Assembly: GCA_944391625.1 (NCBI GenBank)
Contig: CALXUG010000002.1
Location: 40,168 to 104,167 of the forward strand
DNA length: 64,000 bases
Origin: an uncultured Clostridia bacterium
GTDB taxonomy: Bacteria; Bacillota; Peptococcia; Peptococcales; Peptococcaceae
Direction of reading: 5' to 3'
The notes beneath the pieces were generated by a model. That model was given only the letters and a program-made list of their open reading frames with translations. It was not told where the DNA came from and searched no databases. The stretch's first letter is position 1. The number at the start of each line of letters is the position of its first letter. The position numbers were made by a program, and so were the translations under genes. This document shows, piece by piece, positions 5,139 to 36,937 of the stretch.

Positions 5139-7646
5139 TCATTTTTCCGCGAGGGTTGGCTCTACTTTTATTGTAACACTCCACTTCAATATATCTCGCA
5201 GCAATGCATTTGCCTGCCGCTTGGCGATCTGTTGAAAAGAATCATAAATGGCTTCCAAAAACCATGCGGCATACTGATTTCCCTGTGCTGCCGCTTGCTG
5301 CAGCCAAAACAATGCCTGTTTTTCATTATCTGCTTTTGTTCTCTCCTGCCAATAAAGCCGTCCCAGTTGATATTGGGCAAAATTGTTCCCAGCTTCTGCT
5401 TCCGGTAACAAAAAGGCTACCGCTTTATTAAAATCATAAAGATTTTCCTGTGGATCACCATAAATACGGCCCAACAAAATTCCGGCCCAGCTATACTTTT
5501 GCTCCGCTGCTTTTTGCAGCCACTTTAGCGCACGTTCACAATTATCTTCCTGCTGCCGCTTTTGCCAAAATAGTTTCCCTAGTAAATATTGTGCCGTCAC
5601 ATTCTCCTGTTCTGCTTCTGGCTGCAAATACCTGATGGCTTTTTCAAAATCATACAGCCCTTCTTCTGGATTGCTATAGATTCTCCCCAGCAATATTCGG
5701 GCAAAACCAATTTCTTTTTCTGCCGCCTTTTCTAACCAGTAGATGGCATGTTCTTTATCCTCCTCCGTATCACGTTCCTGCCAATAAAGTTTTCCTAACA
5801 GATATTGTACATACCCATTGGCTTGCTTTTGCTGGGCTTGGGGCAATAACGCTGCTATCGCATGCTGATATTCTTCCTTAGTTCCAGTGGAATAGCCCAG
5901 AATACGGTCCAAAAATAATCTGGCCCAGATATTTCTTTGCGCTGCGGATCGCTCCAGCCATTCTAACGCTAATTTTTTATTTTCCCCTTGCTCCTGTTCC
6001 TGCCAGAACAGTCTGCCCAGATAATATTGGGCAAAGCTGTTTCCCTGCTCCGCTGCTGGCAATAAATAAGTCATCGCTTTGTCATAATCATACAGAGATT
6101 CTTCCTCCCGGTTGCTGTGAATACGTCCCAGCAATATACGGGCCCAAAGATGTCCTTGTTCCGCTGCCTTTTGCAGCCATATAATTGCCTGTTCTTGATA
6201 ATCTGCCGTTTCTCGTTCCTGCCAGAAAAACTTTCCCAGATAATACTGGGCAAACTGATTGCCTGACTGTGCCTGCGGCAGAAAATACTGCAGCGCCTTT
6301 TCTGGCGCAAACAAGTCACTATCTTTATTTCCATAAATACGCCCCAGCAAAATTTCTGCCCGTTTATTGCCTCCAGCTGCAGCTTCTAATAAATAGCGCT
6401 CTGCCATTCTTTCATCCGACTCTACACCATTGCCATAAAAAAACTGGTATCCTTTTTGATAGGCTGTCCAGGCAGATTTTTCTGCAGCAGCTCCTGCCAA
6501 TTGGACCATCACACTATCATCCTCTGGGGTTACAAGAGAAGCCGTTTCCAGTTGCCGATCCAATGTCTGCGGCATAAGATTCAATGCAGAACGGATCACC
6601 ATATTTTTAATCACCTTCAGTTTCTTTTCTTCGGATAATTTTCGTTCTGAAGGATTTCCCAGACCATATACTTCACCAGCAGCCCGCTGCCACTCGGACC
6701 ATACTTGGTAGGCTTCTTTGATTTCATCGGTTTCTGCAAGCTGATCTACCAAATTGTTTACCAGCTGCTTTACATCTGCTTTCAAATAGCCATACACTTT
6801 TTTACCCTTACTGTGTTGAAGCCGTCCGGATAGCTCCAGCAGCTGCTCTCCAAAACCATCTGGCAGAGAAGAACATTTCTGCTGTTCTAACTGAAACAAT
6901 ACCTGCTCTGTTCTTTTCAGCAAGGCTTCCCGACTCTCTGCCTGTTCTTCATAAATTTGTAAAAACTCCTGCCGGAATATATCATGCGCTAATTCAGAGC
7001 GCATATTTTGAATTGCTTTTTTAGAGAGATATCCTTCTGACGGCTCCTTAGAATACACCATAATATGCACATGAGGATGATGAGAGGCATTGTGAAACGC
7101 TGCATACCAGTTTAGGTTTTTGCTGTCTATTTTCATTTCCCGACAAAACATGGCCCGTTTAGAACGCAGCAATGCCCGCCAAGCTTTTCCGTTGTCGTAC
7201 CCCAGTCGTACTGCATCTTCCCGCCTTAAACTCACTACATGAGTCCAGATCACTCCTTTATGCTCTGCAGCTTCTTTCTGCACATCCTCCAACACCACAG
7301 GTTTCCCCTGATCGGTAAACAATCCATGACTGCCCTGCCGCTCTGCACCAGGCCTGGTACCAATGTAATCTACATAGTTTTCCCGCTTTTCAGACAGTGC
7401 AGCGTAGATTTCCACGGTTTGTGCAATCAGTTGAGAAGCACGGCCTCGATCTGGATGAGACAAATAGTCTTCGTATTCCAATAGTTTTTTGCCATCTGGG
7501 AAATCTTTCAGCATCTGTTCAATAAACTGTTTTTGCCGTTTTGTTGCCGGAAGCAGTTTCTGACTGTCGTCAATCTTATCCACACCTTCTCTGGTGGCAA
7601 TATACTTCACGTAGTGTTTCAAATGTTCCGGCAGTTTCCCTTTCAT
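5139..7646 (-). CDS. MobP-type relaxase with Sel1-like repeats, 3' end replaced by IS sequence
   Basis: The protein nicks oriT and pilots the transferred strand. The N-terminal relaxase domain shows the HUH metal-binding motif HHPHVHIMVYSK (about residues 189-200). Residues about 395-800 hold some eleven Sel1/TPR-like units alternating ILLGRIYSN and QYYLGRLFWQE forms. The last 12 residues (from VTIKVEP) are encoded by the IS right end, so the native tail is lost. The annotated ATG at 7646 has no SD. Ten codons upstream, in frame, an AGAGGTG SD precedes ATC GCA AAA CTA, where homologues start Met-Ala-Lys/Arg-Leu; the true start seems to be position 7676 with an ATC codon. Confidence 0.88.
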   Translation of the reverse strand: MKGKLPEHLKHYVKYIATREGVDKIDDSQKLLPATKRQKQFIEQMLKDFPDGKKLLEYEDYLSHPDRGRASQLIAQTVEIYAALSEKRENYVDYIGTRPGAERQGSHGLFTDQGKPVVLEDVQKEAAEHKGVIWTHVVSLRREDAVRLGYDNGKAWRALLRSKRAMFCREMKIDSKNLNWYAAFHNASHHPHVHIMVYSKEPSEGYLSKKAIQNMRSELAHDIFRQEFLQIYEEQAESREALLKRTEQVLFQLEQQKCSSLPDGFGEQLLELSGRLQHSKGKKVYGYLKADVKQLVNNLVDQLAETDEIKEAYQVWSEWQRAAGEVYGLGNPSERKLSEEKKLKVIKNMVIRSALNLMPQTLDRQLETASLVTPEDDSVMVQLAGAAAEKSAWTAYQKGYQFFYGNGVESDERMAERYLLEAAAGGNKRAEILLGRIYGNKDSDLFAPEKALQYFLPQAQSGNQFAQYYLGKFFWQERETADYQEQAIIWLQKAAEQGHLWARILLGRIHSNREEESLYDYDKAMTYLLPAAEQGNSFAQYYLGRLFWQEQEQGENKKLALEWLERSAAQRNIWARLFLDRILGYSTGTKEEYQHAIAALLPQAQQKQANGYVQYLLGKLYWQERDTEEDKEHAIYWLEKAAEKEIGFARILLGRIYSNPEEGLYDFEKAIRYLQPEAEQENVTAQYLLGKLFWQKRQQEDNCERALKWLQKAAEQKYSWAGILLGRIYGDPQENLYDFNKAVAFLLPEAEAGNNFAQYQLGRLYWQERTKADNEKQALFWLQQAAAQGNQYAAWFLEAIYDSFQQIAKRQANALLRDILKWSVTIKVEPTLAEK

Positions 7647-7699
7647 GTACTGTGAAGTAAAAATTAGTTTTGCGATTTTATCACCTCTTTATTGGTAAA

Positions 7700-7740
7700 A
7701 GAAAAAGAGTATCCCAGTGGTCACTGAAATACTCTTAGAA
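7700..7740 (-). terminator. Rho-independent terminator of the AbiL-like pair
   Basis: On the minus strand, AAGAGTAT (7736-7729) pairs with ATACTCTT (7712-7705), with an inner CAGTG/CACTG stem, and is followed by TTTTTC. It lies 90 bp past the TOPRIM gene stop and just upstream of the relaxase SD, so it separates the defence pair from the relaxase transcript. Confidence 0.8.
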
Positions 7741-7828
7741 ATGTTATCTTTACTCTATTCTGTTAATATTTTTTCATTATGTTATATAACTCTTCATATA
7801 GATAACTATAATACTATACCTTTATTAT

Positions 7829-8470
7829 TTAACTTTCCAACTCATCATTTAATAAATCAATCCAGTTAACATCATCAGATTCTAACTTAGAAAGCAACCC
7901 ATCTAAATTGCTACTTCCACACTTATTGTCAGTACTAGGTAATTTCTTAAGCCGTTCTCTCATCGTCTCATAATTTTTTACTGTGATTGTATCAAAGAGT
8001 TTGTGTCTTTGATCTTCTTTCGCCTCATACCGCTTTATACCAGTATGTTTTTCGATTATTTTTGCATTTACACTTTTTTTGTGAGACGTTAATATTATTT
8101 CTCCCCAATGTAGAACTATAATCTGCATTGTACAAGGATTTCCGAAGAAAATTACTTTTGCAGCGATATCGTTATCTCCATGAAACTTGTTAATCTTATC
8201 TTTTATCGTTTCATATTGTTCATAAGGGTTTCCATCCGTATCACAAAATACAACTACTATTTCATATGAACCATTTTGATATTTATCTTGGTATATTGCT
8301 GGTATATTTCCGTTTCCTTCAGCATTGAACAAAATTACATCATATATGCTACTCCAAACATCTAAATCTTTCAATTTCATAAGATACTCATATTCTTCAT
8401 AACCCTCACATATAATACAAACTTTATGTTTTACTGGTTTATTAAGAAACGGAGGTATTCTAGTAGACAA
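7829..8470 (-). CDS. RloB/AbiLii-like TOPRIM protein (defence partner)
   Basis: The 213-residue protein is a small TOPRIM-type nuclease candidate. The conserved Glu motif is visible in VCIICEGYEEYEY (about residues 17-29), and VVVFCDTDGNPYEQ (about 73-86) supplies the Asp-x-Asp. This is the RloB (PF13707-like) pattern, as in AbiLii. The start is TTG at 8470, directly after the TAA of the ATPase gene, with AAAGGAG 9 nt before it, so translation is probably coupled. The pair is AT-richer than the relaxase and MobC genes around it, which suggests separate acquisition. Confidence 0.8.
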   Translation of the reverse strand: MSTRIPPFLNKPVKHKVCIICEGYEEYEYLMKLKDLDVWSSIYDVILFNAEGNGNIPAIYQDKYQNGSYEIVVVFCDTDGNPYEQYETIKDKINKFHGDNDIAAKVIFFGNPCTMQIIVLHWGEIILTSHKKSVNAKIIEKHTGIKRYEAKEDQRHKLFDTITVKNYETMRERLKKLPSTDNKCGSSNLDGLLSKLESDDVNWIDLLNDELES

Positions 8471-9739
8471 TTACATCATCTCCTTTTTGTTCCCCTTAAT
8501 ACTTAATAATGTATTAATCAACTCTGGCTCTGGAATAGCACCTAAAACTCCTTTACGATATTTCTCAAATATATCACTGGTATCTCGTACACCATCATTT
8601 GCCGTAAAATCTGCTAACGAATACAAATAAGTATTTTCCTTATCTTTATTTAAAAACCAAATCTGCTCCTTTCTAAACAACTTTTTGCAGTCCATTAAAC
8701 TAATATCATGTACCGTAAAAACCATCTGTGCATTTGTATTCAATTCATTATTAAACATAGCAACTATTGCTCGTGTTAATTTAAAATGTAAACTACTATC
8801 TAGTTCATCAATAATTAATATCCTTCCTTGTTCAATTGCCGCTACAATATAACTTGCCAAAGCTGCTATTTTTTTAGTTCCTGTTGAATCAAATAATAAA
8901 CTTGGTACTGGATGCCCATTGTATATTGATGTTAATCTGATTCTTTCTTCTATTTTCTTATCCAGTACTTTTTCATTCGGTTCTCCATCAGTCTCTTTGG
9001 AGGATACCTTAATACTTATTTCATCATCATTAAGATACCTGTAATCTTCTAAATTCACATCTGCATTTTTTATAAAATCTACAACTCGTTCTTGGATATC
9101 GTCCTTATTTTTCATAATACTTAATGTTTTCTCTATTGGAATATTGTTCATATCCACAATATCTATCTTTGAAGCAAACGATTGTAATATTCTCTTCATC
9201 TCGTCAACTTCTTTAAATGAATTTGAATCCAAAAGATAAATGAGAATATCGCTTTTAGATATTAAAGGCAACATTTTGGTTATCTCCGGATTTAAATCGC
9301 ATTCATAAACCCCTTTGATACCATCGCGTAAAAAATATTGCTTTATGCTTTCATTACCATAATTGTCTTTTTCAATTTTAGAAAAACATTCATAAGCATA
9401 CTCTCTTCGTTCTGTATCATACTTAACTTGATAATTATATTCTTTGTTTTGTTCTAAAAATTTAATTGCTAATTGACTTATGGCACTACGGGTAAAAAAA
9501 TTTTTCTTAATGTCAATCGGCTCATGTAATAATATATTACGGATATTCTTGATACATTTTAATAAGCAAGTCTTTCCTACATTATTAGGTCCATAGACTC
9601 CTGCTACTTTTAAAATATTAAAGTTATTCTCAGAATAAACATTTGATGCTAATTTTTTGGTTCGCATGTCAGCTACTAATGAAAATGTAACTTGGTTAGA
9701 AAAGATATAACAGTTACTTACCGTGACCTCCATAATCAT
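8471..9739 (-). CDS. RloA/AbiLi-like AAA ATPase (defence sensor)
   Basis: The 422-residue protein is an ABC/OLD-like ATPase (AAA_15/AAA_21). Walker A is GVYGPNNVGKTCLLK (about 47-61). Walker B with following signature is LIIDELDSSLHFKL (about 312-325), and a TVHDISLMD switch histidine follows. Together with the TOPRIM gene behind it this matches the AbiL / RloA-RloB layout, in which the ATPase is thought to sense infection and release or activate the TOPRIM effector. A GGAGG SD lies before the ATG at 9739. PARIS and Gabija have related layouts, but the effector here is too short for either. Confidence 0.85.
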   Translation of the reverse strand: MIMEVTVSNCYIFSNQVTFSLVADMRTKKLASNVYSENNFNILKVAGVYGPNNVGKTCLLKCIKNIRNILLHEPIDIKKNFFTRSAISQLAIKFLEQNKEYNYQVKYDTERREYAYECFSKIEKDNYGNESIKQYFLRDGIKGVYECDLNPEITKMLPLISKSDILIYLLDSNSFKEVDEMKRILQSFASKIDIVDMNNIPIEKTLSIMKNKDDIQERVVDFIKNADVNLEDYRYLNDDEISIKVSSKETDGEPNEKVLDKKIEERIRLTSIYNGHPVPSLLFDSTGTKKIAALASYIVAAIEQGRILIIDELDSSLHFKLTRAIVAMFNNELNTNAQMVFTVHDISLMDCKKLFRKEQIWFLNKDKENTYLYSLADFTANDGVRDTSDIFEKYRKGVLGAIPEPELINTLLSIKGNKKEMM

Positions 9740-23104: not shown

Positions 23105-24316
23105 TTACGCTTCCTGCTTGGATATGGTCTGCGGTATAAACTCAATGGTCTTATGTGCTCCACCAGTCCGCCGAATTAGTTCATCCTGTCCCATAATCAA
23201 CATTAAATTTTGTATTAATTTCCCCAGCACCTTTTTGTCATCCTCATCTTCACGATAGTAATAGATTTTTGTTTGCACATTATCGTTACAAATAAGCAAC
23301 TTTAACACATCTCTATCGGTAACATCTAAGGAATGACCAAAGATATACAACATATGCTGCGGACAAACATCTGACCGTTGTTTCTGATAGTCATCATAAC
23401 CGTCTTTGATTTCATCAACCCAATCCAAATATACATTATCAGTAGCCTTGTAAATTCGCTGATAGAATTTTTTGAATGTTAAAAACGTGACATCTTCATT
23501 TTTTCTATCGTCTTTTAAATATTCATCAATACCAAGAACCAGATTGCTGGATCTCTCGTTTTTGTTCATATCTGCTTTTCCATGAATATAGGCATACTTT
23601 ACTCTTTGACTTTGGTCATATATACGTTCATAAGTATCCGAATAATTAAATGACAAGACACAATCTGGATTCAGTTTTCCTATATCTATACTCCGTTTTT
23701 TTACGGAAATTTTACCTACAAAATCCGCAAGATAAATTTCTAAGGCTCGAATTAATCTATTTAATTCTGTATTCAAGTAATCAGTAAATTTATTGATTGA
23801 AGCAATATTTTCGAAATGTTCTTTCGGTATACCTTTTGAAGCATTCCCTATAGCAACTAAAACAGTATCATTGTTCCACCTAAAATCATTATTAGATACC
23901 TGCTTTCGTGCATTATCAAGTGCCTGAATCACTCTTGATATCTCTGACTCAAAATCAATCCAGTTTTCTCCTAATGAAGAACATTTGAAAAAATATTCTA
24001 TCCACGCATTATCCTTAATAAGCGTATGCAATTCATTGATTATTTCATCTGGTGTTTCTCGCTCATAATTAGTGGCTACATTCGCTTGCTCAACCTTTTT
24101 ATTTTTACGTTTATTAAAAGCTTCAAACATTCTATCTTTAATGCTCTCATCCATTTCCCACTTATCAAGATGAGTATCTTTATATCCTGACGCGTTTTTT
24201 GCATCATTCCATGTATAAATTATTTCTACTCTTTTGCAAAAATCCAGAAAATTCTTGTAGGTAGTTGGTAGACCATGCTCCAAATCAAAACCGTTCCCAA
24301 TTAATAATATTTCCAT
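23105..24316 (-). CDS. AbiH-family phage abortive-infection protein
   Basis: The 403-residue protein starts MEILLIGNGFDLEHGLPTT, the typical nucleotide-binding-like GNGFD motif of the AbiH family (PF14253). Later segments VLSFNYSDTYERIYD, AYIHGKAD and LYIFGHSLDVTDRDVL also fit the family. It is a single-gene phage-resistance factor. It is AT-rich compared with the transfer genes on both sides, has its own terminator, and lies between virB4 and the surface module, so it looks like an inserted cargo gene. Confidence 0.88.
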   Translation of the reverse strand: MEILLIGNGFDLEHGLPTTYKNFLDFCKRVEIIYTWNDAKNASGYKDTHLDKWEMDESIKDRMFEAFNKRKNKKVEQANVATNYERETPDEIINELHTLIKDNAWIEYFFKCSSLGENWIDFESEISRVIQALDNARKQVSNNDFRWNNDTVLVAIGNASKGIPKEHFENIASINKFTDYLNTELNRLIRALEIYLADFVGKISVKKRSIDIGKLNPDCVLSFNYSDTYERIYDQSQRVKYAYIHGKADMNKNERSSNLVLGIDEYLKDDRKNEDVTFLTFKKFYQRIYKATDNVYLDWVDEIKDGYDDYQKQRSDVCPQHMLYIFGHSLDVTDRDVLKLLICNDNVQTKIYYYREDEDDKKVLGKLIQNLMLIMGQDELIRRTGGAHKTIEFIPQTISKQEA

Positions 24317-32108: not shown

Positions 32109-33065
32109 TTAACTGTCGAACAAATTCATCTGTTCCCGCCATTGAATACGACCTTCTATTTTCGGATTATAATTGGTAATCACCACCTCCGAATACTGCA
32201 TGCCGCCTTCATATCTCTGTGCCAGATTATTCAGTCGGCTGACACGCTCAATAAAATAGTCTTCATATAATTGACGGATAAAGGCACAGTCATTGTAGCT
32301 TACCATCCATTTGCCCTGCGTTTGGGCCAGGGTATCCCGCAGCCGCTTATGATCCGTTTGGCTAAATTTCACTGTATAATATCCTTCTGTTTCAAAATAG
32401 GGCGGATCACAGTAAAAGAAAGCGTCGGGACGGTCATAAAGCCCAATCAAGTCTTCAAAGTCTTTGTTCTCCACAATGGTATTGCTAAGCCGTCTGGAAG
32501 CTTCCCAAATGGTTTGAAAGCCCTTGCGGATATCTACACCTTTACAACAATACGACCGACACTCATTGCCATAGCTATAACGGATCAAACGATAAAAAGC
32601 GGCGGCTCTGCGAACATCCAGTTCTTCTGCTCGTTCCGTCATCAGCTTCTTCAATTCTTCCGCAGCAGGCGGCGGCAATTCTCTCTCCAATAACGCGATT
32701 TCTTCTGCCAGATAGTCTGCCTCAAATTCGTTTCTGTTTAAAAACTGCCGCAGTATTAAAAATTCACTGCGGGAATTTAACGGCAAAAAGCCCAATTCCT
32801 TAATGAGGGAAATGGGCTTATCTCTGGTACATAAAAATAAATTGGCCAAATCATTGTTGTAATCATTATACACTTCCATGCTGCAATGATCCTGCGGTTT
32901 CCCAAACAATACCCAACCACCGCCGCCAAACACTTCAATATATCGGCCATAGTTTTTGGGAAACAATCGATACAGCTCTTGCCGCAGGGCCTTTTTTCCT
33001 CCTACCCAGGAGATAAAGCTGTTTAAAATAAGGACCCCCTCCTCATTCTGTTTGTTCTGGTTCAT
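32109..33065 (-). CDS. Dam-type DNA adenine methylase (D12 class)
   Basis: The 318-residue protein has the SAM-binding motif SFISWVGGKKALRQELYRL and FGGGGWVLFGKP, the NDYNNDLANLF loop, and the catalytic DPPY in FFYCDPPYFETEGYYTVKF. These are the D12 class motifs in the usual order. No cognate endonuclease is nearby, so it looks like an orphan methylase that could protect the element from host restriction during transfer. It overlaps the upstream gene by 23 bp. Confidence 0.92.
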   Translation of the reverse strand: MNQNKQNEEGVLILNSFISWVGGKKALRQELYRLFPKNYGRYIEVFGGGGWVLFGKPQDHCSMEVYNDYNNDLANLFLCTRDKPISLIKELGFLPLNSRSEFLILRQFLNRNEFEADYLAEEIALLERELPPPAAEELKKLMTERAEELDVRRAAAFYRLIRYSYGNECRSYCCKGVDIRKGFQTIWEASRRLSNTIVENKDFEDLIGLYDRPDAFFYCDPPYFETEGYYTVKFSQTDHKRLRDTLAQTQGKWMVSYNDCAFIRQLYEDYFIERVSRLNNLAQRYEGGMQYSEVVITNYNPKIEGRIQWREQMNLFDS

Positions 33066-34980
33066 TTAGCCGTTTTGGGCAGATACAGCCATAAGAGGTT
33101 TGTATCCCGCCAAGCTGTACCAATTTGGCTTTCCCATATTTAGCAAAATCCACTGTCATGGTTTCTTCTTCTGTCAATTGTACATGGTGCGTCTGTTCAA
33201 ACATTTGGACTCCAAATGCATGATATCCCCAAACAGCGCTATAAAACTGGTACTGATCCAACAAATTAGCCTGATGAATGGCTTCGGCCAGGGTAGGACG
33301 CACCAATAATTCTAATACGGCTTTATATTTTACAAGCTTTTGGTTTTCTTCCAGACAAAGCAGCCACCAACTCAGCGTTTCAATCTGAGCAATCTCTTCT
33401 AATTCTTCATATATGGTTGGAATCAATGCTGGTACCCGGCAATCAATTTCTACGGTTTTCGCTTCCCGCACGTTCCTTTGCCACAGCTCCGGCTGACAAC
33501 ACGCCTCTTCCAAGTCTTTGGGTAAAAAAACCGTTTCCTGTTCTCCCCGCCCATTTTGCAAAACTATCTGAATCATGGTGTTCTTCTCTGTCTTTTGGTA
33601 CTCCGGCAATAATAACGCCTTATGATGGCAATGCCTATAGCAGCCTTCCTGTTCTTCACGCTGTTCAGTTTGTTTAACCTCCATATGGTTCAAATGCTGC
33701 CTGAGTTCCTGTAAAAGCCATTTAGAGTCCTGTAAACAGCAATCACCCGTTTCTGTTTGCTCCACCATAGCAATTCCTTTTTGCTCCAAACAATCTTTCA
33801 ACACCAGAGCAAACCAGGTTAGCTCCAAAATCGAAGGTACTTCTTCCATCTCGGACAGGATGGTCTGAAGCCCTTGCTGTGCAAACCCGTCCAACTGGGA
33901 TAAAACCCAGGCAAAACGGTTCCATTCCGAAAGACTTCCTATGGCTTTGCCCGTTTCCGTTTGCTGCCACAGCACTTCTTCTAACTCCGGCAGCAGGCTG
34001 CTGAAAAATGCAATAAACAGATGACTCTCTTCCTCTTCGCCCAACCGCTCCAACACATCCTGCATCCCCCAAGGTGAAAGGGGCAGAGAAACCACTTCAT
34101 CTACCTCCTCTTTTTTGAAGGTAACCTGTGGATACACATCCACAGTCAATACGCTTGGCCGCTGTACCAAAGCAGGACCAATGACCATCGGCTCTATCTC
34201 TTTCTCAATCATCCGAACCCCATTCTCGGCAAAGAATAATCGAATCCGTCCATTCTCCCATGCGATGCCTTCCTGTGTAAAGGGCTGACCCCAACCAAAG
34301 CTGCACTCCCGAATCAGAATATCCCGCAGCCGTATTCTTTCTTCCTGTATCAGCCGCTCTGTTATACGGCAAACCAGTTTCCCATATAAGGTTCCTTCTT
34401 CCAACACCAAATCTGGTTCAATAGAAAATACTTTCTGCTGCAATTCTTTGTCTGTCAGATAAAAAGCCAAACGCCGCAATCCTTCTTCCGGCTGTATGTG
34501 CATAGTAAACTGCGCTTGAAAAAATTCCAGGACCAATTCAATCTCTTCTTGATTCAGTCTTCTTACCAGCGGCTGCTTTTTGACAGATGTCTCTCCTTGT
34601 TCTATTCGCTGCATCCCGGCAGGAATCCAGATTTCCAACACCTGTAACGAAGCAGGGCGCTCCCATTCATCCAACAAACAAAATAATCTGCGAAAATCCA
34701 AACTTTTTTCTTTCTGACAAATACGATTTAAGGTTTCCAGCTGCCCTATCGTAAAGCGGCTTAAACGCATGGCCAACGTATTTAATAAATCCAGACGGGT
34801 ATCCTTTTCAATCAACGGCGCAATCCATTCCAGATAACACTGCGCTTTACCAATCTGCCAATCTGTTTTCCCGTTTCCACCTTGCTGCAATTTCTTCCGC
34901 AACAACTCCTGCGGCTGCGGAAGACAAATTACCATGCTGCATTCTGGTCTTTTTATCTGTTCCATCTGAAGTTCTATCAT
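33043..34980 (-). CDS. Large ArdA-like ICE protein (645 aa)
   Basis: The protein looks like two ArdA-like units. The first (residues 1-270) has LLNTLAMRLSRFTIGQLETL, IEPDLVLEEGTLYGK and ECSFGWGQPF, which correspond to segments of the 446-residue protein at 27-28 kb. The last part (from MIQIVLQNGRGEQETVFLP) has YEELEEIAQIETLSWWLLCL, ANLLDQYQFYSAVWGYHAFG and a final DFAKYGKAKLVQLGG, the layout of ArdA-type proteins. The middle is acidic and unrecognised. Role as anti-restriction DNA mimic is inferred from this resemblance. Confidence 0.55.
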   Translation of the reverse strand: MIELQMEQIKRPECSMVICLPQPQELLRKKLQQGGNGKTDWQIGKAQCYLEWIAPLIEKDTRLDLLNTLAMRLSRFTIGQLETLNRICQKEKSLDFRRLFCLLDEWERPASLQVLEIWIPAGMQRIEQGETSVKKQPLVRRLNQEEIELVLEFFQAQFTMHIQPEEGLRRLAFYLTDKELQQKVFSIEPDLVLEEGTLYGKLVCRITERLIQEERIRLRDILIRECSFGWGQPFTQEGIAWENGRIRLFFAENGVRMIEKEIEPMVIGPALVQRPSVLTVDVYPQVTFKKEEVDEVVSLPLSPWGMQDVLERLGEEEESHLFIAFFSSLLPELEEVLWQQTETGKAIGSLSEWNRFAWVLSQLDGFAQQGLQTILSEMEEVPSILELTWFALVLKDCLEQKGIAMVEQTETGDCCLQDSKWLLQELRQHLNHMEVKQTEQREEQEGCYRHCHHKALLLPEYQKTEKNTMIQIVLQNGRGEQETVFLPKDLEEACCQPELWQRNVREAKTVEIDCRVPALIPTIYEELEEIAQIETLSWWLLCLEENQKLVKYKAVLELLVRPTLAEAIHQANLLDQYQFYSAVWGYHAFGVQMFEQTHHVQLTEEETMTVDFAKYGKAKLVQLGGIQTSYGCICPKRLNEPEQTE

Positions 34981-35001: not shown

Positions 35002-36429
35002 CTACATTTTTAATTCTGCTTCCTGTTGTAACTCCTCCAACTGCTGCATATCAATTTTCTGCAAACCATCGTAAAGCATCTGGCTAACCAAAGTCATCTG
35101 CCGACTTTCTTTCAGCCAAAGCTGCTCAACATCCAGACTGTTTTCACTGCAATATCCAAAGCGAACGCAATCTAATGCATCCGCATCCTGCAAAATTTGA
35201 AACAACTCTCGTACAGTTTCCTGCTTTTCCACCGGAAGCTGCCCTAAATGCCATTCCAAATCTCTGTGATCTGCTTCATGAAATGAAATTAAGAATTCCA
35301 CATCTTTGACAGTGAGCGTTTTTTGATATTCAGACTGCATAACATTATCTGCAGATGCCCTACTATGAAACGCTCTGTTGGCATTTTTTCGGCTATTGTC
35401 ATGATAGATGCTGGCTATGGCCAATATCTGGTGATTCATCTGCAGTGTTTCACCAGGATGTCTGGCCTCATAAATCAGCTCACTTAACAGCATAGTGCGC
35501 ATGGCATGCATCATGTCATGCGCTTCTAACTCAAGGCCAATAAAATCTTCCCGGTATATTTCAAACAGCGGATAATATTTTGTTATCCCATTTTTTAAAA
35601 AGTTCTTATCATACAGCCAGTCTATTTCCAATACCTGAACATGTTCAGGTAAGAGCAATATTTCCTGCTCGCTTTCATGGCCCAAGCATAAAATATCTTC
35701 TTGATTGGCTTCTGCACTCAGAAAACGATTCCCCGTTTCGCCCAAACGTGTGGCATAAAAGGTTGCAATTTTAGGGTTTAAACTCCAGGAATAGGCTTTC
35801 TCATACGGGATACTTTCCTGCCCTTCCCCCCGATAAATACGGATACGCTCCGGTAATTGCTGTTTTACCTCTTCCAGCTTTTCCTTTTCTTCTGGCGGCA
35901 TTTTTGCTGCAATACGCAGTAAATTTTCTTTTTTTATTGCGGATGCACCAAAGTCTGCCCCAACAAAGGTACTGTGAAATAACGAATACACCTCTTTGAT
36001 TGGCTTGTTTTGGCTTAGAATATGGTTTAGGTACTCCATTTTCATCCGGCCATTCAGGCTCCAATGAATAAAGCGATAATCCCCCTCCTCCATGCTTTTT
36101 TTACAGACCTCCATTTCTTTTTCAACGGCACGTTCAACCTCTTCTCGCCCCTTTCCAAACTCTAATTCTACCGGCACTTTTAGCAGTATATTTTCAGCAG
36201 CATCCCAATAATAAATAGGGCTAAAACCACGATTGCAGTATATATGCTCTGGATTCAAATTGGGATAAGCAATCTGAAAACTTTTATAGCTGTATGGAAA
36301 GTAATAGTGTAACGATTGATAAGCCTCCTCATATTGTTTGCGCTCCAGTTCCGTTGGAATGTCTTTTAATGGGATAAAATACTCCATACTCTCGTTCTGC
36401 ACCAGTTCCATTAATTCTGATGTGTTCAT
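35002..36429 (-). CDS. ADP-ribosyltransferase-HD hydrolase fusion protein
   Basis: The 475-residue protein appears to join two domains. Around residues 195-270 it has the three motifs of an R-S-E type ADP-ribosyltransferase: RIRIYRGEG (Arg), AYSWSLNP (Ser-x-Ser) and SEQEILLLPEHV (Glu-x-Glu). From about 300 on, an HD phosphohydrolase pattern follows: EAHDMMHAM, IYHDNSRKN, FHEADH and LQDADALDCVRFG. The N-terminal 190 residues are helical and unrecognised. It is the first gene of the ICE operon, next to the tRNA. Which nucleotide or protein it acts on is unknown. Confidence 0.7.
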   Translation of the reverse strand: MNTSELMELVQNESMEYFIPLKDIPTELERKQYEEAYQSLHYYFPYSYKSFQIAYPNLNPEHIYCNRGFSPIYYWDAAENILLKVPVELEFGKGREEVERAVEKEMEVCKKSMEEGDYRFIHWSLNGRMKMEYLNHILSQNKPIKEVYSLFHSTFVGADFGASAIKKENLLRIAAKMPPEEKEKLEEVKQQLPERIRIYRGEGQESIPYEKAYSWSLNPKIATFYATRLGETGNRFLSAEANQEDILCLGHESEQEILLLPEHVQVLEIDWLYDKNFLKNGITKYYPLFEIYREDFIGLELEAHDMMHAMRTMLLSELIYEARHPGETLQMNHQILAIASIYHDNSRKNANRAFHSRASADNVMQSEYQKTLTVKDVEFLISFHEADHRDLEWHLGQLPVEKQETVRELFQILQDADALDCVRFGYCSENSLDVEQLWLKESRQMTLVSQMLYDGLQKIDMQQLEELQQEAELKM

Positions 36430-36799: not shown

Positions 36800-36854
36800 C
36801 CCTTGATACAACTGGCTTTGAGCCGATTGCATCTATTTCGTATTTAATGTAAAT

Positions 36855-36937
36855 GCGGGCGAGAGGACTTGAACCTCCACGAGATTGCTCCCACTAGAAC
36901 CTGAATCTAGCGCGTCTGCCAATTCCGCCACGCCCGC
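36855..36937 (-). tRNA. tRNA-Leu(CAG)
   Basis: The 83-nt minus-strand sequence folds as a class II tRNA: acceptor GCGGGCG paired with CGCCCGC, an anticodon arm CTAGA-TTCAGGT-TCTAG giving anticodon CAG (Leu), a variable arm, and a T arm with GGTTCAAGTCC. CCA is not encoded. Its 3' end faces the ICE, so it is a likely integration target for a tyrosine integrase. Confidence 0.95.

What the first reader, a model, noticed from the sequence alone, without database searches (positions are those of the whole stretch)
35002..36429. ADP-ribosyltransferase-HD hydrolase fusion at the head of the ICE
One protein holds the Arg, Ser-x-Ser and Glu-x-Glu motifs of R-S-E ADP-ribosyltransferases and, behind them, a complete HD pattern (HD, HD, H, D). 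This could be a modifier with a built-in hydrolase, for defence, anti-defence or control of the recipient. It is the strongest candidate in the window for an undescribed system.
Basis: inference. Interest (0 to 1): 0.65.

Follow-up and report, generated by a model that had tools for sequence, protein, structure and literature searches.

The report
ADP-ribosyltransferase fused to HD phosphohydrolase
A gene at the edge of a mobile DNA element encodes one protein that should attach ADP-ribose to a target and then cut a phosphate bond, and its second half turns up joined to four different kinds of ADP-ribose enzyme, so it is probably an uncharacterised ADP-ribose-processing domain used by plasmids, phages and conjugative elements.

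Summary
ORF 35002-36429 (- strand, 475 aa) is a real two-domain protein. Profiles built only from stand-alone phage/plasmid ARTs match residues 99-265 (67.5 bits; best of 1000 shuffles 10.8). Profiles from stand-alone HD proteins match 290-459 (76.6 bits; shuffles at most 4.6). AlphaFold2 gives pLDDT 90.8 with an ART-like core and an all-helical HD domain. One correction: the first 'HD' (H304-D305) is not a motif, because D305 is G or A in most relatives; the ligand set is H308, H343-D344, H355, H384, D415/D417. The gene heads a probable operon with an unknown 645-aa protein and a Dam-like methylase, conserved in a sister ICE. It is not unique: ART-HD fusions occur on Bacillota megaplasmids, phage contigs and chromosomes. 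The same HD family is also joined to a PARG macrodomain, to DarT beside a macrodomain gene, and, order reversed, to another predicted ART. Best mechanism (inferred): the ART writes ADP-ribose and the dinuclear HD cleaves ADP-ribose-type pyrophosphates, a SidE-like pairing. Some Syntrophomonas members lost ART residues while every HD residue is kept. No paper found describes the fusion.

The parts
35002..36429 (-). ART-HD fusion gene, 475 aa
   Evidence: family alignments; structure
36136..36429 (-). N-terminal region, residues 1-98, shared with family members and with phage/plasmid stand-alone ARTs L021 and L023
35635..36135 (-). R-S-E type ART module, residues 99-265
   Evidence: stand-alone ART profile 67.5 bits against at most 10.8 for shuffles; T4 ModA/ModB profile-profile E 3.5e-4 with motifs in register; fold match to TreTu/TreX ART toxins
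35830..35832 (-). R200 codon (YRG)
   Evidence: 35/43 conserved
35782..35790 (-). S214-W215-S216 (S-x-S)
   Evidence: S214 29/43, W215 43/43, residue 216 S or T 39/43
35662..35670 (-). E254-Q-E256 (ExE)
   Evidence: E256 36/43; first position E 25, D 4
35053..35562 (-). HD phosphohydrolase domain, residues 290-459
   Evidence: stand-alone HD profile 76.6 bits against at most 4.6 for shuffles; fold matches to PDEs, PPX HD region and YedJ
35506..35520 (-). H304 to H308 (HxxxH, followed by R311); H308 is the predicted first metal ligand
   Evidence: both His 43/43
35398..35403 (-). H343-D344, the HD dyad
   Evidence: 43/43
35365..35367 (-). H355, predicted second-metal ligand
   Evidence: 43/43
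35278..35280 (-). H384, predicted second-metal ligand
   Evidence: 43/43
35179..35187 (-). D415-A-D417, terminal Asp ligand region
   Evidence: 42/42 where present
33043..34980 (-). 645-aa protein of unknown family, next gene of the probable operon; homologue in the sister ICE
   Evidence: start 22 bp after ART-HD; no Pfam hit; homologue in L119/L069
32109..33065 (-). Dam-like adenine DNA methyltransferase, overlapping the preceding ORF
   Evidence: PF02086 2e-29; same order in L119
36854..36937 (-). tRNA-Leu(cag) just beyond the gene, possible element boundary
   Evidence: no second att copy found in C2:1-40000 plus the window

Best explanation
The protein is a bifunctional ADP-ribose enzyme of mobile elements. 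The N-terminal ModA/ModB-like R-S-E ART (residues about 1-265) takes ADP-ribose from NAD+ and puts it on a host macromolecule; the ExE motif is the kind associated with arginine targets (general knowledge of ART families). The C-terminal HD domain (290-459), with a predicted dinuclear metal centre, hydrolyses a phosphoanhydride in the ADP-ribose unit, either on the modified target (leaving phosphoribosyl-target plus AMP) or on ADP-ribose released from it. This would resemble the mART plus HD-derived PDE pair of Legionella SidE enzymes, but with metal ligands intact and hydrolysis, not transfer, as default. Expressed as first gene of an ICE operon with a methylase, it would reprogramme the new host or protect the element there. 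Shown here: the two domains, their conservation, the fold predictions, the gene order, and the repeated fusion of this HD family to ADP-ribose enzymes. Inferred: both activities, the HD substrate, the target and the role in transfer.
For: Both domains recovered by independent profiles and supported by fold. The ART profile aligns with T4 ModA/ModB at E 3.5e-4 with YRG, SxS and AxxFA in register, against 0.059 for the HD control. The HD family is linked to distinct ADP-ribose enzymes: R-S-E ART; PARG macrodomain TIGR02452 (L003, 1.8e-46); DarT within an 1838-aa protein on a viral contig whose next gene is a Macro-domain protein (L115); and a C-terminal predicted ART in reversed order (L088 model matches pertussis S1 and TreX). 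HD and ART occur as neighbouring genes in viral contig L114. In an even sample of 399 Bacillota genomes, 10 of 12 strong family members carry an ART or PARG domain. The motif H..HD..H..H..D matches dinuclear HD enzymes such as YqeK, a diphosphatase acting on Ap4A (PMC8177086). SidE chemistry and the HD-like nature of its PDE: PMC8605245 and PMC6941232. The HD profile weakly lists DupA (6ryb), lpg1496 and SdeD among its PDB hits (E 0.06-0.4).
Against: Many relatives of the HD domain are not fused to a recognised ADP-ribose domain (40 of 69 non-identical rows in the genome scan), and at least one is fused to a HAD hydrolase (L092), so the ADP-ribose link is not exclusive. Where ART residues have decayed, the HD stays intact, so the HD cannot only serve its own ART. 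Hits to SidE-type PDE structures are not significant, and the stronger PDB hits are an unassigned HD hydrolase, an HD-GYP and a cGAMP phosphodiesterase. No activity was measured. The PARG-HD fusion is seen once (1 of 9 TIGR02452 loci sampled).
Confidence: 0.45

Rival explanations
1. Eraser in cis: the HD removes the whole modification or limits its lifetime, making a self-limiting or self-immune toxin (toxin and antitoxin in one chain).
For: Fusion of writer and hydrolase; DarT/macro and PARG associations; HD phosphatases coupled to ADP-ribosylglycohydrolases are reported in PMC9503650.
Against: HD domains are mostly phosphohydrolases and the ADP-ribose-target bond is N- or O-glycosidic, so full removal would be new chemistry; HD invariance continues after ART decay.
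Confidence: 0.15
2. The HD is the main effector on ordinary nucleotides (dNTPs, (p)ppGpp, cyclic dinucleotides) and the ART region is a sensor or a separate activity joined by chance.
For: PDB profile hits to HD-GYP 4mcw, 3',3'-cGAMP PDE 5z7c and YedJ-like proteins; HD proteins without an ADP-ribose domain are frequent; ART decays while HD is kept.
Against: Four different ADP-ribose enzymes joined to one HD family, and 10 of 12 members in an even sample, is hard to explain by chance; in most mobile-element members the ART motifs are intact.
Confidence: 0.25
3. Phage-type host-takeover ART: the ART does the work, as T4 ModA/ModB do on RNA polymerase or ribosomal proteins, and the HD only tidies free ADP-ribose or NAD breakdown products.
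For: Stand-alone relatives of the ART in phages and ModA/B similarity; an ART-HD is carried by a 153-kb viral contig.
Against: HD is more conserved than ART in the groups compared, only slightly so in plasmid and phage members.
Confidence: 0.15

Closest known systems
SidE family (mART plus HD-derived PDE, Legionella)
   Same: R-S-E mART and an HD-like phosphodiesterase in one chain; SidE PDEs are described as resembling classical HD domains (PMC6941232).
   Different: Domain order reversed (PDE before mART in SidE); here the metal ligands H308, H343-D344, H355, H384, D415/417 are intact whereas SidE uses a His-Glu-His triad and a phospho-His intermediate (PMC8605245); ubiquitin is not expected in the bacterial host; sequence match to SidE-type PDEs is not significant.
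T4 ModA/ModB ADP-ribosyltransferases
   Same: R-S-E motifs, YRG and AxxFA blocks in register, phage-type small ART.
   Different: No HD domain; distant (E 3.5e-4 by profile only, probability 37%).
YedJ/YpgQ/YqeK-type HD phosphohydrolases (PF01966)
   Same: HxxxHxxR, HD, H, H, DAD pattern; fold and profile hits to YedJ-like structures.
   Different: Own conserved signature (HGxxHxxRV ... HDIGR ... KDADGLDRVR ... LR) and fusion to ADP-ribose enzymes.
DarTG
   Same: L115 joins DarT to the same HD family, with a Macro-domain gene next to it.
   Different: Window ART is R-S-E, not DarT, and no macrodomain antitoxin was identified beside it.
ARG-centred counter-ADP-ribosylation loci
   Same: HD phosphatase reported as partner of ADP-ribosylglycohydrolase (PMC9503650).
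   Different: There no ART is linked; here ART and HD are one protein.

Membership tests
R-S-E clade ADP-ribosyltransferase | Arg, S-x-S and [E/Q]-x-E motifs in order | tested here: met
   R200, S214-W-S216, E254-Q-E256; conserved across active members
R-S-E clade ADP-ribosyltransferase | ART fold | tested here: met
   AF2 strands 195-202, 214-216, 235-242, 256-258, 265-271; Foldseek matches to TreTu/TreX, prob 0.80-0.94 but E 0.2-0.3
R-S-E clade ADP-ribosyltransferase | Detectable homology to a known ART family | tested here: inconclusive
   hhalign to ModA/ModB E 3.5e-4 at probability 37%; Pfam ADPrib_exo_Tox 0.0059 in one of 12 members
R-S-E clade ADP-ribosyltransferase | NAD+-dependent transferase activity | not testable with these tools
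   needs assay
HD superfamily phosphohydrolase | H...HD...D metal motif and all-helical fold | tested here: met
   relatives reach PF01966 above cut-off
HD superfamily phosphohydrolase | Extra H..H between HD and D (dinuclear type) | tested here: met
   H355 and H384 43/43; criterion from PMC8177086
SidE-type PR-ubiquitin ligase | mART plus HD-like PDE in one chain | tested here: met
SidE-type PR-ubiquitin ligase | PDE homologous to SidE/Dup PDE with His-Glu-His triad | tested here: not met
   only non-significant hits (E 0.06-0.4); metal-ligand type HD instead; residue-level comparison not made
Known anti-phage defence system (PADLOC) | Match to a defence model | tested here: not met
   no hit
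DarTG toxin-antitoxin | DarT domain plus macrodomain antitoxin | tested here: not met
   no DarT hit in the protein; no Macro hit in the neighbouring genes scanned

The most novel reading that the evidence does not exclude
A prokaryotic counterpart of SidE chemistry: mobile elements make phosphoribosyl-modified (or phosphoribosyl-bridged) host macromolecules in two steps within one protein, ART then HD, and the HD family is a general ADP-ribose pyrophosphatase module found with at least four kinds of partner: two kinds of ART, DarT and PARG.
Probability: 0.2. Interest if true: 0.85.

Novelty: new variant of a known kind. Interest (0 to 1): 0.55.

Why it matters
If the HD cleaves ADP-ribose on targets, macrodomains and glycohydrolases could no longer undo the mark in the usual way, giving mobile elements an irreversible or recoded ADP-ribosylation. 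The HD family also gives a handle for finding unannotated ADP-ribose systems: its partners exposed an ART family missed by Pfam, a DarT-HD protein beside a macrodomain gene, and a PARG-HD fusion.

Tried and rejected
Single-sequence Pfam, NCBIfam, PADLOC and PDB searches: no hits. Viral-contig scan with the single sequence: none. Same-order and same-class genome searches: only two relatives besides self. Conserved operon partners outside the genus: neighbours of chromosomal members are mostly housekeeping genes and differ between lineages, so neighbourhood gives no target. att repeat for tRNA-Leu: none of 13 bp or more in C2:1-40000 plus the window (167 bases between them were not read). PDB profile search with the ART part alone: only chance hits. 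HD, or the C-terminal ART of L088, against ModA/B: no match. Papers for an ART-HD fusion: none found in the open library; subscription papers are not held.

Full report
OBSERVATION. The ORF at 35002-36429 (minus strand) is 475 aa. It is preceded by GGAGG, and the next gene (645 aa, 33043-34980) starts 22 bp after its stop behind AGGAGG; that gene overlaps the Dam-like methylase 32109-33065. So ART-HD is the first gene of a probable three-gene operon. The rest of the left half is a conjugative element: coupling protein (986-2740), MobL relaxase (5139-7646), TrbL, TrbC-like and TraG/VirB4-like proteins, sortase, SpaA pilin, M23 peptidase and AbiH. tRNA-Leu lies at 36854-36937. I found no att repeat, so the boundary is inferred.

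Direct searches with the single protein gave nothing in Pfam, NCBIfam, PADLOC or PDB; PHROG 4776 (unknown function) matched residues 186-267 at 8.9e-10. Relatives solved this. A sister species has a 46% identical full-length protein in a similar ICE, with the same order methylase, unknown protein, ART-HD plus one extra small ORF. Megaplasmids of Pontibacillus, Alkaliphilus, Jeotgalibacillus, Paenibacillus, Brevibacillus and Aneurinibacillus carry it, as do Syntrophomonas-type chromosomes and two near-identical 153-kb viral contigs. Stand-alone ART relatives occur in Lysinibacillus and Mycobacterium phages and Bacillus plasmids.

CHANCE. Profiles built without any ART-HD protein recover both halves: four stand-alone ARTs match residues 99-265 with 67.5 bits (best of 1000 shuffles 10.8), and 36 stand-alone HD proteins match 290-459 with 76.6 bits (best shuffle 4.6). 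AlphaFold2 on 32 sequences gave pLDDT 90.8, pTM 0.86, with strands at 195-271 and helices from 275. Foldseek found cyclic-nucleotide PDEs, the HD region of exopolyphosphatase, YedJ, and the ART toxins TreTu/TreX. E-values were 0.08-0.4 with high match probabilities; with a two-domain query I treat this as support, not proof. The ART profile aligned to T4 ModA/ModB at E 3.5e-4 (probability 37%) with YRG, SxS and AxxFA in register; the HD control gave 0.059.

D305 is not conserved, so the motif list 'HD, HD, H, D' is wrong at its first item. The set invariant or nearly so in 43 proteins is H304, H308, R311, H343, D344, R347, H355, H384, D415, D417, D420, R423. H308, H343-D344, H355, H384 and a terminal Asp form the extended H..HD..H..H..D pattern said to diagnose dinuclear HD sites (PMC8177086). 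The first residue of ExE varies.

WHAT THE HD FAMILY KEEPS COMPANY WITH. (a) R-S-E ART at its N-terminus: the window type. (b) A PARG-like macrodomain, TIGR02452, E 1.8e-46 (L003). (c) DarT within an 1838-aa protein on a viral contig, preceded by a helicase-like ORF and followed by a Macro-domain gene (L115). (d) A C-terminal domain in L088 and relatives with conserved H, S and E; its model (pLDDT 77.5) matched pertussis toxin S1 and TreX besides HD proteins, so it is a predicted ART in reversed order. (e) Neighbouring HD and ART genes in viral contig L114. In an even sample of 399 phylum genomes, 12 strong HD-family hits occurred; 9 are ART-HD (one with a decayed ART), one PARG-HD and two stand-alone. 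In the genome-contig scan, forms without a recognised ADP-ribose domain are more common, and one HD is fused to a HAD hydrolase (L092) and others to unassigned domains. The association is strong but not exclusive. An HD phosphatase coupled to ADP-ribosylglycohydrolase has been reported (PMC9503650), which fits.

ART DECAY. In a Syntrophomonas group the ART residues are lost (R200 absent in 8 of 43, E256 absent in 7 of 43 overall), while the HD ligands are 43/43 (D415/417 42/42). Mean pairwise identity in that group is 0.37 for ART, 0.46 for the N-terminus and 0.60 for HD; in active relatives it is 0.48, 0.50 and 0.57. The HD therefore seems to have a job that does not need ART catalysis. A tree of 100 HD domains needs at least 3 changes for the decayed state and 13 for all architectures. 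Many forks are weakly supported, so independent recruitment of each partner is likely but not proved. PARG-HD groups with the window pair at SH-aLRT 92, below the 95 mark.

MECHANISM. Inference: the shared factor among ART, DarT and PARG is the ADP-ribose unit, and the bond in it that suits an HD phosphohydrolase is the pyrophosphate. Known HD diphosphatases act on Ap4A (YqeK), dNTPs (YpgQ) and (p)ppGpp (SpoT) (PMC8177086). SidE enzymes join an R-S-E mART to an HD-like PDE: the mART makes ADP-ribosyl-ubiquitin, and the PDE attacks the beta phosphate and releases AMP (PMC8605245; PMC6941232). I propose the same two steps here with a metal-dependent HD and water as default acceptor. In the HD profile search of PDB, DupA, lpg1496 and SdeD appear at E 0.06-0.4, which is not significant. 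I did not fetch SidE sequences for a residue comparison (see referred steps). Rivals: eraser in cis, HD acting on ordinary nucleotides, and ART as sole effector.

VERDICT. A real, conserved, undescribed (in the open literature searched) fusion family, present well beyond this ICE. Works like: SidE-style ART plus phosphodiesterase, inferred. Is a member of: the HD superfamily (met), an R-S-E ART (motif and predicted fold met, homology weak); not SidE, DarTG or a PADLOC system. Interest 0.55.

Noticed in passing
L115:2009-7522 and 7582-8298: 1838-aa protein on a viral contig with DarT and an HD domain, followed by a Macro-domain gene and preceded by a helicase-like ORF: a DarTG-like locus with an HD module.
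   Followed up: partly
L003:592-2007: TIGR02452 PARG-like macrodomain fused to the same HD family in a member of the window's own family; 1 of 9 TIGR02452 loci sampled.
   Followed up: partly
L088:8899-10374, also L082, L096, L099, L100: HD domain followed by a C-terminal predicted ART missed by Pfam (conserved H225, S269, E327 in L088).
   Followed up: partly
L018, L019, L022: ART-HD sits divergently beside NAD-dependent DNA ligase LigA, with a 3'-5' exonuclease downstream, in three Paenibacillaceae megaplasmids.
   Followed up: no
L036-L047: Syntrophomonas ART-HD proteins with lost ART catalytic residues but intact HD: possible pseudo-ART sensors.
   Followed up: partly
window 33043-34980: 645-aa ICE protein with no family match, conserved in the sister ICE between ART-HD and the methylase.
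   Followed up: no
window 5139-7646: MobL relaxase carrying Sel1 repeats and a TPR-like stretch in one 835-aa protein.
   Followed up: no
window 23105-24316 and 8471-9739: AbiH and an AAA_21 (AbiEii-like) ATPase among the ICE genes: likely defence cargo.
   Followed up: no
L062:8422-9795: ART-HD in a contig titled Methanocorpusculum sp. (goat cecum); transfer to an archaeon or mis-binning, not resolved.
   Followed up: no
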